From Actinomycetes bacterium (GTDB taxonomy: Bacteria; Actinomycetota; Thermoleophilia; Gaiellales; Gaiellaceae): 39,228 nt of DNA. The translations under genes were made by a program, and so were the position numbers. The DNA is taken from contig JAHEXT010000002.1 of the NCBI GenBank assembly GCA_023251945.1, forward strand, positions 1-39,228. Direction: 5' to 3'. Below, one piece after another: positions 21,281 to 24,484 of the stretch. The notes below the pieces were generated by a model. The model was given only the letters and a program-made list of their open reading frames with translations, was not told the DNA's origin and did not search any database. Position 1 is the first letter of the stretch; every line of letters begins with the position of its first letter.

Positions 21281-22218
21281 GACGTTCGAGCTCCAGGCTC
21301 GAGCACGGGCGCAGGTACCGCCGGCCGCGTCCACGGAAGCTGGCGGCCGAGCAGCTCCTCGAGCCGGCGGGTGTGCGGCTCGAACGTGCTAGCGAGCCGG
21401 TCGCGGATCTCGGCCACCATGGGCTCGTACTCGTTCACCGACCGCAGCGGGTAGGTCTCGGCCTGCCAGGCAGGGATGCCGAGGAAGGCTGCCACGACCG
21501 CCATCGTTTCCGCCGGATCATCGAGAAGGTCGTCACTCGTCAGGATCAGGAGCTGCTCGCGCGGGAAGAAGCGGAGCCAGCGCTCGAGCTGCTCCGCGTA
21601 CCGCCCCCGGGCGACATAGGACCGTTGAAGCCCGGTCGGCGAGATGTAGGCCGGGTCGGCGAGTAGACGTTCGAGCTCGCGAGGCCATTCCTCCTCCTCG
21701 CGCTCGAGCGCGTACTCGAAGGACCGCGTCTCGGTCCCGCCGCGCAGCTGCATCTGGTACTGGGAGTACGCCCGCTCGACGGGGTCACGCAGCACGCTGA
21801 TCAGCTTCAGCCCGGGATCGAAGGCGTAGACGCGCTCCGGAACGCGCGGGTGGAAGAGGTAGGCCGGCGTCACCTCGCCGACGGCAGGGTGGACGCCGAG
21901 CCTGCGGCGGACGGCCGCTCCACGGGTCGCGAGCGGGAAGTGCGCCAGGTACCAGCCGGGGCCGCGCTGGTACTCCACGTTGAAGTAGTGCACCTCTTTC
22001 GGCGTTGCGCACAGGGCGGCGGGATGCTCCCGCAGGTACCGATACAGGGCGGTCGTTCCTCCCTTCTGCGCCCCGATGACGAGGAAAGTAGGGCGCATTC
22101 GCGCACGCGCCGTCGCGCGACGGGCCGTCGGTGCCAACGGCGCGACCGCCCGGCCGAGACGCCAGGTGACGGATCGCTGCATGCGCGCAAGCAGCCGGCT
22201 CGTTTCCGGCTCCGCCAC
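21277..22218 (-). CDS. Sulfotransferase domain protein
   Basis: A 313-residue PAPS-dependent sulfotransferase of the type that sulfates carbohydrates or lipids. The 5'-phosphosulfate loop is FLVIGAQKGGTTALYRYL and the 3'-phosphate-binding strand-helix is ISVLRDPVERAYSQYQ; TPKEVHYFN and a late LTSDDLLDDP fit bacterial heparan-type relatives. The ORF starts at GTG 22218, only three bases after the 3' end of the tRNA-Lys gene, and the first 40 residues are basic and Arg-rich; ATG starts at MQRSVTW or MRPTFLV are possible. No own promoter is obvious, so it may be transcribed through the tRNA. Acceptor unknown; nearby sugar-synthesis genes suggest a surface glycan. Confidence 0.88.
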   Translation of the reverse strand: MAEPETSRLLARMQRSVTWRLGRAVAPLAPTARRATARARMRPTFLVIGAQKGGTTALYRYLREHPAALCATPKEVHYFNVEYQRGPGWYLAHFPLATRGAAVRRRLGVHPAVGEVTPAYLFHPRVPERVYAFDPGLKLISVLRDPVERAYSQYQMQLRGGTETRSFEYALEREEEEWPRELERLLADPAYISPTGLQRSYVARGRYAEQLERWLRFFPREQLLILTSDDLLDDPAETMAVVAAFLGIPAWQAETYPLRSVNEYEPMVAEIRDRLASTFEPHTRRLEELLGRQLPWTRPAVPAPVLEPGARTS

Positions 22219-22221
22219 GGA

Positions 22222-22294
22222 TGGGCCGTGAAGGATTCGAACCTTCGACCTTGGGATTAAGAGTCCCCTGCTCTACCAGCTGAGCTAACGGCCC
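22222..22294 (-). tRNA. tRNA-Lys (anticodon CTT)
   Basis: The minus strand folds as a standard 73-nt tRNA. The acceptor stem GGGCCGT pairs perfectly with ACGGCCC, the D arm contains GCTCAGCTGGTAGAGC, the anticodon arm GGGACTCTTAATCCC presents CTT, and the T arm is GAAGGTTCGAATCCTTC. The discriminator base is A. No CCA is encoded. It reads lysine AAG codons. Its 5' end is three bases from a nested RNA-like fold and its 3' end is three bases from the sulfotransferase GTG. Confidence 0.97.
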
Positions 22295-22297
22295 CTA

Positions 22298-22457
22298 AGA
22301 GCTCCTAACACACTAAGGAACGAGGGCGCCTGGCCGCACTGGCGATACGGCGTCCTCGGTCGCACCCATATCTACTTCGATATGGGCGCTCCCTGCGTCC
22401 TTGTCTCGCGCGACCCAGTGCGGCCAGTCACCGTGTCCCAAGTGTGTTAGAAGCTCT
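22298..22457 (-). ncRNA. Candidate structured RNA (nested three-helix rod) upstream of tRNA-Lys
   Basis: Three nested inverted repeats stack into one rod of 160 nt. The outer arms are 22298-22314 and 22441-22457 (16 of 17 paired), the middle arms 22330-22342 and 22415-22427 (13 of 13), and the inner arms 22362-22372 and 22379-22389 (10 of 11) with a six-base loop. The two mismatches are C-A on the plus strand but U-G and G-U on the minus strand, so the fold is complete only in minus-strand RNA. Internal loops of 14x15 and 25x19 bases separate the helices, recalling 6S-type RNAs, though no 6S consensus was identified. A -10-like TACACT predicts a start at 22457. Alternatives are a terminator of the upstream gene or a MITE-like remnant. 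Confidence 0.6.
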
Positions 22458-22463
22458 CGGCCA

Positions 22464-22469
22464 AGTGTA
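22464..22469 (-). promoter_or_regulatory. Putative -10 element (TACACT) for the structured RNA and tRNA-Lys
   Basis: On the minus strand TACACT (4 of 6 matches to TATAAT) is followed by six bases (TGGCCG), placing the transcription start on 22457, the first base of the outer helix. A convincing -35 is absent (GTTCGG at 17-bp spacing). Inference only. Confidence 0.4.
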
Positions 22470-22498
22470 GCCCTGCTCATCGCGACCCGAACGAGGGG

Positions 22499-24484
22499 CT
22501 AGGCAGCTTCGCGGGTCCCGTTCGAAAGCAGCGCGGCGGCCTCTTCGGCCGGCTGCGGGCGTCCGTAGAGGAACCCCTGTGCGTAGTCGCAGCCGAGCGC
22601 TCGCAACGCGTTGTGAACTTCGTGCGTCTCGACGCCCTCCGCAACGACGCGGAGCCCGAGACTCTGCGCGAGATGGATCGTCGCCAGCACGATCATCCGG
22701 TCCTGCCGGGACACCGTCATCCCGGATACGAAGCTCATGTCGATCTTCAGCTCGTGGGCGGGCAGGCTCTTCAGGTAGGTGAGCGACGAGTGACCCGTGC
22801 CGAAGTCGTCGATCGAGATGCGCACGCCGGTCGAAGCGATGCGCTCGAGGACGGACTGAGCTCGCTCGGGGTCTGCCATCACCGTGCTCTCGGTCAGCTC
22901 GATGCACAGACGGCTCGGATCGACGCCCTGCCTTCGGAGGAGAGCCTCGAGCCGTCTCGGAAGCTGGATGTCCAGAAGGTCGATCGCGGTCAGGTTCACC
23001 GCCAACGTGAACTCACCGTCGAGCGCGTCCCACTCCGCCAGCTGCCCGATCGCGCCGGACAGGACCGCGCGGGAGATGTGGCGGATCGCGCCGGTTCGCT
23101 CGGCCATCGGAACGAATGCGCCCGGAGGCAACAGCCCGCGAGTCGGATGCTGCCAGTACGCGAGCGTCTCGAAGCCGATGACGGCTCCGGTCGCGAGGTT
23201 CACCTTGGGCTGGTAGTGGAGGCGGAGCTCGCCGTTCTGGGCAGCAACTCGCAGGGCCGCGACCAGCCCGAGCTGCTCCGGGTCGTGAGGATCGACTGCA
23301 GGGCTGTACGCAAGCTTCGCCACGCGCCATTGCTTCGCCGTGTGCATGGCGACCTCTGCGTGCTTCAGCAGAGTCGCGGCATCGTTGCCGTCCTTCGGGA
23401 AGAACGAGATACCGACCGTCGCGTCCACTGCGATCTGAACGTCTCCGACGTTGAGGGGCGGCTCGACCGCGAGTCGGATCTCTTGTGTGAGCGCGTCGAC
23501 CTCCTCCTCGAGCGTGTAGCCGGTCACCACCGCGAACTCATCGCCTCCCAGGCGGGCAATGAGCCTCTCCCCTGCTACGACGGAATCCAACCTGACGGCG
23601 GTCGCCTCGAGCAGTGCGTCGCCGGCCTCGTGTCCCAGCGTTTCGTTGATCTCGCGGAACCGGTCGAGATCCAGCAGGAGGACGGCCAGCAGCTGTTCCT
23701 TCTCCGCGGCCCGACCGACGGCGAGCTGAAGCCGCTCGAAGAGATGCGCTCGGTTCGGCAGCCCCGTCAGCTCGTCGTAGAACGCCTGGAAGTGGATCCG
23801 CTCGATCTGTCGCCGGATCCGCCTCGTCACTCTGGCCAGAAGAGGAACGAAGACGAGGAAGAGCACGAGCAGCAGCCCCTCGAGAACGCCCCCGATCCGG
23901 ATCTGGGCGGCGCGGGCGGTGTGATCGATCGGTGCGTAGGACTGGGTGATCAGCGCCGATCCCCCGTGGACGTTCGGCCCAACGGGAGCGTAGGTCTCGA
24001 GCGACTTGCGACGCGCCGGCGTGCTCGCGGCTCGAGCCGTCGAGACCCTGCTCGCGATCGTTCCTGCTGCGGCTTCGGATGCGAGTGCACCGGAGACCGA
24101 GGTCCCGATCGCGCGGTGGTCTGTCGAGTACGTCACGAGGCCGTCGCGTCGCACGAGTGAGACGCCGAGGGTGTCCTCCGCGACCACGTACGTCGCGAAG
24201 AGAGCGTCGAGCTCCTCTCGGCGCGCGGGCGAGACCCGCTTGGCAAGGTCGCTCGGCCGCACCTCGCGCTGGAGGAGTGCGGATGCGACAAGACCCGCCT
24301 GCCGCGTGGCGGCCCGCTCCGCCTGCGAGAGAGCGAAGTGATGCACGACCACGAGGATCAGCGCCGACGCCAGCCCGAGCGTGAGCGACAGCACGAGCGC
24401 GAAGCGGAGGACGAGCCGGGGCGGTCGCTCGGCCGCGAAGAGCTCTGACCGCCGTGGGCGGCCTCGCAGCGACGGAGCCCTCAT
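22499..24484 (-). CDS. Membrane GGDEF-EAL cyclic-di-GMP protein
   Basis: A 661-residue signalling protein. The N-terminus has a first membrane helix (VLRFALVLSLTLGLASALILVVV), an extracytoplasmic sensor of about 150 residues and a second helix (VLEGLLLVLFLVFVPLLARV), followed by GGDEF (about 235-400) and EAL (about 420-655) domains. The diguanylate cyclase site is intact (ARLGGDEFAVV; substrate motif FYDELTGLPNR). The phosphodiesterase retains NLTAIDL, ELTEST, IDDFGTGHSS, ELKID, EGVET and QGFLYGRP, but its first motif is FETLAYW rather than the usual FEALxRW, so the Arg is Tyr. ATG overlaps the upstream gene (ATGA). It may make or degrade c-di-GMP depending on the sensor. Confidence 0.92.
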   Translation of the reverse strand: MRAPSLRGRPRRSELFAAERPPRLVLRFALVLSLTLGLASALILVVVHHFALSQAERAATRQAGLVASALLQREVRPSDLAKRVSPARREELDALFATYVVAEDTLGVSLVRRDGLVTYSTDHRAIGTSVSGALASEAAAGTIASRVSTARAASTPARRKSLETYAPVGPNVHGGSALITQSYAPIDHTARAAQIRIGGVLEGLLLVLFLVFVPLLARVTRRIRRQIERIHFQAFYDELTGLPNRAHLFERLQLAVGRAAEKEQLLAVLLLDLDRFREINETLGHEAGDALLEATAVRLDSVVAGERLIARLGGDEFAVVTGYTLEEEVDALTQEIRLAVEPPLNVGDVQIAVDATVGISFFPKDGNDAATLLKHAEVAMHTAKQWRVAKLAYSPAVDPHDPEQLGLVAALRVAAQNGELRLHYQPKVNLATGAVIGFETLAYWQHPTRGLLPPGAFVPMAERTGAIRHISRAVLSGAIGQLAEWDALDGEFTLAVNLTAIDLLDIQLPRRLEALLRRQGVDPSRLCIELTESTVMADPERAQSVLERIASTGVRISIDDFGTGHSSLTYLKSLPAHELKIDMSFVSGMTVSRQDRMIVLATIHLAQSLGLRVVAEGVETHEVHNALRALGCDYAQGFLYGRPQPAEEAAALLSNGTREAA

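What the first reader, a model, noticed from the sequence alone, without database searches (positions are those of the whole stretch)
22298..22457. Undescribed 160-nt nested RNA fold fused to the 5' side of tRNA-Lys
Seen: three nested helices (16/17, 13/13 and 10/11 base pairs) form one rod on a common axis. Both imperfect positions (22304/22451 and 22364/22387) are C-A or A-C on the plus strand but G-U on the minus strand, which supports selection on minus-strand RNA. The minus-strand -10-like TACACT predicts a start at 22457, the exact first base of the outer helix, and the fold ends three bases before the tRNA 5' end, so RNase P cleavage would release its 3' end. Inference: a stable regulatory or polymerase-binding RNA (6S-like rod with internal bulges) co-transcribed with tRNA-Lys, not just a terminator.
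Basis: partly seen in the sequence, partly recalled or inferred. Interest (0 to 1): 0.78.

Follow-up and report, generated by a model that had tools for sequence, protein, structure and literature searches.

The report
Mobile palindrome in a tRNA leader
The long hairpin next to the lysine tRNA gene is one of many scattered copies of an undescribed 160-base mobile palindrome found across a poorly studied class of soil and water bacteria; it jumped in between this tRNA's promoter and the tRNA, so it is not a conserved regulatory RNA, although its folding on one particular strand has clearly been selected.

Summary
The fold is real: 160 nt on the minus strand, -99.1 kcal/mol, z = -9.9. It is not a conserved 6S-like RNA of the tRNA-Lys locus. 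It is one member of a dispersed family found in Thermoleophilia metagenome-assembled genomes (MAGs) and absent from Rfam: about 57-nt arm, 47-nt core, 57-nt arm. There are 14 copies in this 1.28-Mb MAG. I estimate about 240 in a 4.6-Mb single-contig genome, and only 1 in two near-complete congeners. The core (GGACGCAGGGAG-hairpin-CGACCGAGGACG) is near-invariant; the arms differ from copy to copy yet stay complementary. Two relatives with the same upstream gene have empty sites: the window carries exactly one palindrome inserted between the tRNA promoter's -10 and the tRNA. Elsewhere, copies fill stop/start junctions of operons (for example rplN-rplX) and often supply the TAG stop. G-U pairs exceed A-C mismatches about 5:1 on the core strand whichever way neighbouring genes run. 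The strand signal is real but belongs to the element, not to this locus. Likeliest reading: a non-autonomous REP/ERIC-like mobile palindrome that propagates through its folded core strand. The mobilising enzyme is unknown: neither Y1 transposases nor reverse transcriptases track copy number.

The parts
22298..22457 (-). whole mobile palindromic element (160 nt), core strand = minus
   Evidence: fold z -9.9; dispersed copies; exact extent shown by empty sites in two relatives
22441..22457 (-). outer helix, 5' arm (element left end)
   Evidence: pairs with 22298-22314
22298..22314 (-). outer helix, 3' arm (element right end)
22415..22427 (-). middle helix 5' arm (CTGGCCGCACTGG)
   Evidence: locus-specific sequence, pairing kept in other copies
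22330..22342 (-). middle helix 3' arm (CCAGTGCGGCCAG)
22389..22400 (-). core, 5' half GGACGCAGGGAG (near-invariant in the family)
22362..22389 (-). apical hairpin of the core (sequence variable between copies, pairing kept)
22351..22362 (-). core, 3' half CGACCGAGGACG (invariant in the aligned copies)
22464..22469 (-). inferred -10 box TACACT of the ancestral tRNA-Lys promoter (TAGACT in relatives)
   Evidence: alignment with L180 and L182; no full sigma-70 consensus match
22222..22294 (-). tRNA-Lys(CTT)
22499..24484 (-). upstream GGDEF-EAL gene, conserved neighbour that supports orthology of the empty sites

Best explanation
The fold is a recent insertion of a dispersed, non-autonomous mobile palindrome (REP/ERIC-like in behaviour, unrelated in sequence as far as tested). 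Shown: the family is multi-copy and restricted mostly to Thermoleophilia. The unit is about 160 nt with a near-invariant purine-rich core inside variable but complementary arms. It inserts as one exact palindrome, mostly in stop/start junctions, where its termini often supply the stop codon. In the window it sits between the tRNA-Lys promoter and the tRNA. Inferred: the core strand must fold, as RNA or less likely as single-stranded DNA, for the element to be copied or inserted by a factor acting in trans that recognises the invariant core. At this locus the element is simply carried as the 5' leader of pre-tRNA-Lys, transcribed from the old tRNA promoter, and removed by RNase P.
For: Dispersed copies in the own MAG (14 hits) and in 41 of 61 relatives; copy number varies sharply within the genus (1 in near-complete G004 and G007, 30-33 in G010). 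Empty sites: G008 and G006 share the GGDEF-EAL neighbour and read ..TAGACTTGGCCGTCCC|tRNA, whereas the window reads ..TACACTTGGCCG[160 nt]TAG|tRNA. The rplN-rplX junction carries a recognised copy in the own MAG and in G091 but in none of the roughly 28 other relatives. 143 distinct copies: arms of about 57 nt pair in each copy although all four Watson-Crick pair types occur across copies. Covariation far above shuffles and slid controls. Core-strand mismatches are G-U, not A-C (520:106; 84 copies against 9), also in copies antisense to both neighbours (190:20). 61 of 82 facing gene 3' ends lie within 12 nt of an element and only 1 of 81 copies lies inside a gene; stops next to copies are enriched in TAG and poor in TGA.
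Against: No mobilising enzyme was found: Y1_Tnp and RVT_1 do not track copy number, and no split or gene-bearing copy was seen in the parts of FR_37 read. No target-site duplication is evident. Copies share ancestry, so mismatch counts are not independent events. Orthology of empty sites was checked at two loci only. No expression data.
Confidence: 0.85

Rival explanations
1. A conserved stand-alone regulatory or polymerase-binding RNA (6S-like) made from the tRNA-Lys promoter.
For: Strong fold with strand-specific wobble pairs; a tRNA promoter just upstream and RNase P site just downstream.
Against: Absent from the orthologous tRNA-Lys loci of the genus that were read; the same core occurs at many unrelated sites in both orientations; no Rfam match at all in the fold, even at E <= 5.
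Confidence: 0.04
2. An in-place mRNA element: copies are kept because they act in transcripts as terminators, 3' stabilisers or RNase III processing sites between genes.
For: Precise placement at gene ends and operon junctions, strong stems, conserved core, known precedent for ERIC and Correia elements changing mRNA decay (review PMC10969869).
Against: Orientation to neighbouring genes is mixed (22 sense, 34 antisense, p = 0.14), yet the fold is optimised on the core strand in both; every spc-operon copy recognised by its core motif was antisense (6 of 6), so the mRNA there carries the weaker fold; positions are not conserved; no U-tract terminator; recent private changes in FR_37 show no G-U excess.
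Confidence: 0.12
3. A DNA-level signal (replication, segregation or nucleoid protein site) that needs an extruded or single-stranded DNA hairpin on one strand.
For: Strand-specific fold independent of host transcription.
Against: No bias relative to the leading strand in FR_37 (49 against 46, from positions and skew); copy number ranges from 0 or 1 to hundreds among relatives; G-T pairs stabilise DNA far less than G-U stabilises RNA (established knowledge).
Confidence: 0.06
4. A classical MITE: internal deletion of a DDE insertion sequence, recognised by its terminal inverted repeats.
For: Long palindrome, high copy number, intergenic, patchy distribution.
Against: Termini vary while the centre is near-invariant, the reverse of a transposase-recognised TIR; no target-site duplication at the two empty sites examined; a DDE mechanism gives no reason for a strand-specific G-U excess.
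Confidence: 0.12

Closest known systems
REP / GTAG-tagged repetitive extragenic palindromes and BIMEs
   Same: Dispersed intergenic palindromes in high copy, abutting coding regions; GTAG REP termini are reported to supply TAG stop codons to flanking ORFs (PMC3733652), as here.
   Different: REPs are 20-40 bp; this unit is about 160 bp with a long internal-loop core. Y1 (RAYT-type) transposase genes do not track copy number and are absent from FR_37, which carries at least 150 copies.
ERIC sequences (enterobacterial repetitive intergenic consensus)
   Same: About 127-bp imperfect palindromes in gene spacers, up to 711 copies in one genome, reported to insert at 3' ends of genes and affect transcripts (PMC10969869; the 127-bp size from PMC2759123).
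   Different: Different phylum; no sequence comparison was made; ERIC duplicates a TA target (own knowledge), not seen here; the strand-specific wobble bias has not to my knowledge been described for ERIC.
QMITE2 of Coxiella, Correia elements, RUP/BOX and other bacterial MITEs
   Same: Non-autonomous, palindromic, fold when transcribed, found in 3' untranslated regions; insertion sequences target them (PMC10969869), and an unknown insert sits in the loop of several copies here.
   Different: MITEs keep terminal inverted repeats conserved; here the ends vary and the centre is near-invariant.
6S RNA (RF00013)
   Same: A long rod-like fold with internal loops.
   Different: No match; a separate 6S candidate lies elsewhere in a relative (L061:2860-2987).

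Membership tests
6S RNA / any Rfam family | covariance-model score at or above gathering | tested here: not met
   window at gathering: only tRNA; 22200-22560 at E <= 5: nothing on the fold; 16 loci with copies: none on the element
6S RNA / any Rfam family | conserved single locus across relatives | tested here: not met
   orthologous tRNA-Lys loci lack it; many copies per genome
REP element | 20-40 bp palindrome tagged by GTAG or CGTC | tested here: not met
   full-length class about 160 nt, short class about 100 nt; termini often CTAG or CTAA but not a constant GTAG tag
REP element | associated RAYT / Y1 transposase | tested here: not met
   PF01797 absent from FR_37 and G091 and from copy-rich G020, G035 and G027; present with 1 copy in G004 and G007
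REP element | termini supply TAG stops to neighbouring ORFs | tested here: met
   TAG 37 of 61 against 165 of 443 background; TGA 13 of 61 against 238 of 443
ERIC / MITE | multi-copy, intergenic, non-coding palindrome, polymorphic between related genomes | tested here: met
ERIC / MITE | conserved terminal inverted repeats | tested here: not met
   outer arms vary between copies, centre near-invariant
ERIC / MITE | target-site duplication | tested here: inconclusive
   none evident at tRNA-Lys or rplN-rplX, only two sites compared
ERIC / MITE | cognate autonomous insertion sequence | tested here: inconclusive
   no split copy with cargo in the FR_37 sequence read or in other loci; other transposase families not tested
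Intrinsic terminator | GC-rich stem followed by U-tract | tested here: not met
   none found in 22200-22600

The most novel reading that the evidence does not exclude
A selfish element whose unit of selection is a folded single strand: a 160-nt rod with an invariant tandem G-A core that is copied or inserted through its RNA (or ssDNA) form by a machinery not based on known Y1 transposases or reverse transcriptases, and that targets the stop codon of gene junctions (T^GA becoming T-AG) so that it can settle even inside ribosomal-protein operons without damage.
Probability: 0.3. Interest if true: 0.8.

Novelty: new variant of a known kind. Interest (0 to 1): 0.58.

Why it matters
It shows that a very significant, strand-biased, covarying RNA fold beside a tRNA can be a mobile repeat, a trap for structured-RNA discovery. 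It also adds a large undescribed repeat family to a class of uncultured actinobacteria. The family reverses the usual design (invariant centre, variable but complementary ends) and keeps wobble pairs on one strand regardless of host transcription. That makes testable the old question of whether some bacterial palindromic repeats spread through RNA or single-stranded DNA.

Tried and rejected
(1) Rfam: no family. (2) Y1/RAYT transposase as mobiliser: no correlation. (3) Reverse transcriptase: 41 copies in 98%-complete G022 with no RVT_1 match. (4) Replication-strand signal: orientation 49:46, hand-counted from the list with skew. (5) Autonomous copies with cargo: none found. (6) Contrast of private and shared mutations within FR_37: a first set looked significant (21:18 against 28:7), but the larger set did not confirm it (p 0.10-0.70). 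I do not rely on the contrast; what holds is that private changes show no G-U excess and that shared changes are mostly compensated. (7) My first gene caller produced antisense ORFs and was replaced by one trained on codon-position bias and checked on ribosomal operons; contexts cited are. (8) The insert in the loop of four copies could not be identified because contigs end there. (9) Shine-Dalgarno supply by the element: 14 of 33 starts against 154 of 473 background, not clearly different. (10) Literature: no paper on such repeats in Thermoleophilia found among those held.

Full report
OBSERVATION. The stretch 22298-22457 folds on the minus strand into a nested rod of -99.1 kcal/mol (z = -9.9), three bases upstream of tRNA-Lys(CTT) at 22222-22294. 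Rfam finds only the tRNA.

IT IS A DISPERSED REPEAT. A BLAST search of the window's own MAG (73 contigs, 1.28 Mb, 63% complete) finds about a dozen further partial copies of the inner part at 81-94% identity on other contigs. A strict core pattern, GGACGCAGG-N15-45-CCGAGGACGC, occurs 6 times and its reversed control 0 times. Most records are labelled Thermoleophilia, Solirubrobacterales or Gaiellaceae, or only Actinobacteria/Actinomycetota; one is labelled Streptosporangiaceae. In 61 relatives, 41 have copies: nearly all of family f1, most of f2, 0 of f3, 2 of f4. Across the phylum 7 of 120 genomes have a match, including three in one other family. In 1.2 Mb of contiguously tiled FR_37 sequence there are 62 hits, which extrapolates to roughly 240 per genome. 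Tandem arrays with periods of about 163 and 107 bp occur.

ANATOMY. The dominant class has arms of about 55-66 nt around a core of about 47 nt, so about 160 nt, exactly the size in the window; a short class has arms of about 23-30 nt. In the 66-copy alignment the two core halves are invariant or nearly so: GGACGCAGG(G)AG and CGACCGAGGACG, separated by a variable hairpin. Read as a helix, the halves alternate G-C pairs with tandem G-A/A-G pairs (inference). The arms pair in each copy while across 99 copies nearly every position uses all four Watson-Crick pair types, up to the sharp end near position 57. For the core plus inner arms, covariation is 0.412 against 0.128 +/- 0.011 for shuffles and at most 0.093 for slid controls.

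STRAND. Among arm mismatches on the core strand G-U outnumbers A-C 520 to 106 and G-A outnumbers C-T 320 to 62. Per copy, G-U exceeds A-C in 84 and the reverse holds in 9; in FR_37 in 85 and 0 of 86. Copies share ancestry, so these are not independent events. The excess is the same for copies antisense to both flanking genes (190:20) and sense (119:22). It therefore cannot come from selection on host read-through transcripts. Orientation is unbiased to replication in FR_37 (49 leading, 46 lagging, hand-counted from the list with GC-skew). The simplest reading is that the folded core strand matters for the element's own propagation; RNA is favoured over ssDNA because so many wobble pairs are tolerated (inference).

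WHERE IT SITS. With a gene caller checked on ribosomal operons, only 1 of 81 full-length copies lies inside a gene. 61 of 82 facing gene 3' ends and 33 of 71 facing 5' ends lie within 12 nt, and in 23 co-directional pairs the element fills the entire spacer. Stops abutting copies are TAG 37, TAA 11, TGA 13 against a background of TAG 165, TAA 40, TGA 238 (p = 7e-4 for TAG, 2e-6 for TGA), so the termini, often CTAG or CTAA, supply stops. The same is reported for GTAG REPs (PMC3733652).

MOBILITY AND THE WINDOW'S COPY. Two congeners, G008 and G006, have the same GGDEF-EAL gene (64% identical) upstream of tRNA-Lys and no element. They read GGCTAGACTTGGCCGTCCC|GGGCCGTTAGC and GGCTAGACTTGGGCGTCCC|GGGCCGTTAGC; the window reads GGCTACACTTGGCCG[160-nt palindrome]TAG|GGGCCGTTAGC. 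One exact palindrome has entered between the tRNA promoter's -10 and the tRNA. Second case: rplN and rplX are separated by 175 nt, an element, in the own MAG (the second copy is in the rplX-rplE gap), and by -4 to 18 nt in most relatives. All spc-operon copies recognised by their core (own MAG two, G008, G077, G091 two) are antisense to the operon. By eye, diverged copies in other relatives are antisense too, and the antisense (core) strand folds about 20-32 kcal/mol more stably than the mRNA strand. This suggests that the sense orientation is costly in highly expressed mRNAs (inference).

MECHANISM. Shown: dispersal, exact insertion of the palindrome, variable but complementary arms, near-invariant core, strand-specific fold, placement at gene junctions. 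Inferred: a trans-acting factor recognises the folded core strand. Y1 transposases (absent from FR_37 and G091, present in G004 and G007 that have one copy each) and reverse transcriptases (RVT_1 in 5 of 61) do not fit, and no gene-bearing copy was found. Within FR_37 recent private changes show no G-U excess while shared changes are mostly compensated, which is consistent with selection during propagation; a sharper contrast seen in a smaller set was not confirmed.

COMPARISON. In behaviour it resembles REP/BIME and ERIC repeats (reviewed in PMC10969869). It fails REP size, tag and RAYT association and the MITE feature of conserved termini, so I do not file it in either family. No paper describing it was found in the held library, which lacks most subscription journals.

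LIMITS. MAG assemblies; gene calls are mine; related copies inflate counts; two empty-site loci only; no expression data.

Noticed in passing
L006:1501-1666, L009:1-175, L011 (C45 contig end), L012 (C5 contig end): Something is inserted exactly in the apical loop of several copies (end AAGGCGTATGC...; apparent 8-bp duplication CGAAGTAG at C9/C28); contigs break about 120 bp in, so it is probably an insertion sequence that targets this palindrome.
   Followed up: partly
L004 and L008, inside the element core: Two copies carry a second palindrome, CCCCAGAAAGTGCTGGCGCACTTTCTGGGG, nested between the apical hairpin and the 3' core half: another repeat family inserted in the first.
   Followed up: no
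L014:240-335 (C47 of the window's genome): A simple hairpin GAGCTCCTAACACGGTG...CATCGTGTTAGGAGCTC shares the outer ends of the window element but has no core; it may be a related or deleted form.
   Followed up: no
L061:2860-2987: 6S RNA (RF00013) match at gathering score in a relative, about 900 bp from an element copy but not part of it.
   Followed up: no
L227:15576-16114 and other FR_37 loci: Head-to-tail arrays of the element with 163-bp and about 107-bp periods, suggesting slippage or rolling-type amplification.
   Followed up: partly
spc ribosomal operon: L193, L194, L201, L164: All recognised copies in rplN-rplX, rplX-rplE and neighbouring junctions are antisense to the operon; the mRNA carries the weaker-folding strand.
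   Followed up: partly
L212 (G022), after rplN stop: A different perfect hairpin, GCCGTGGAAATGC...GCATTTCCACGGC, directly follows the rplN stop, so other palindromes use the same junction.
   Followed up: no
L347 (IMGVR_UViG_3300026300_000009): One copy of the strict core pattern lies on a contig of the viral collection, so carriage by a phage or a mis-assigned host contig is possible.
   Followed up: no
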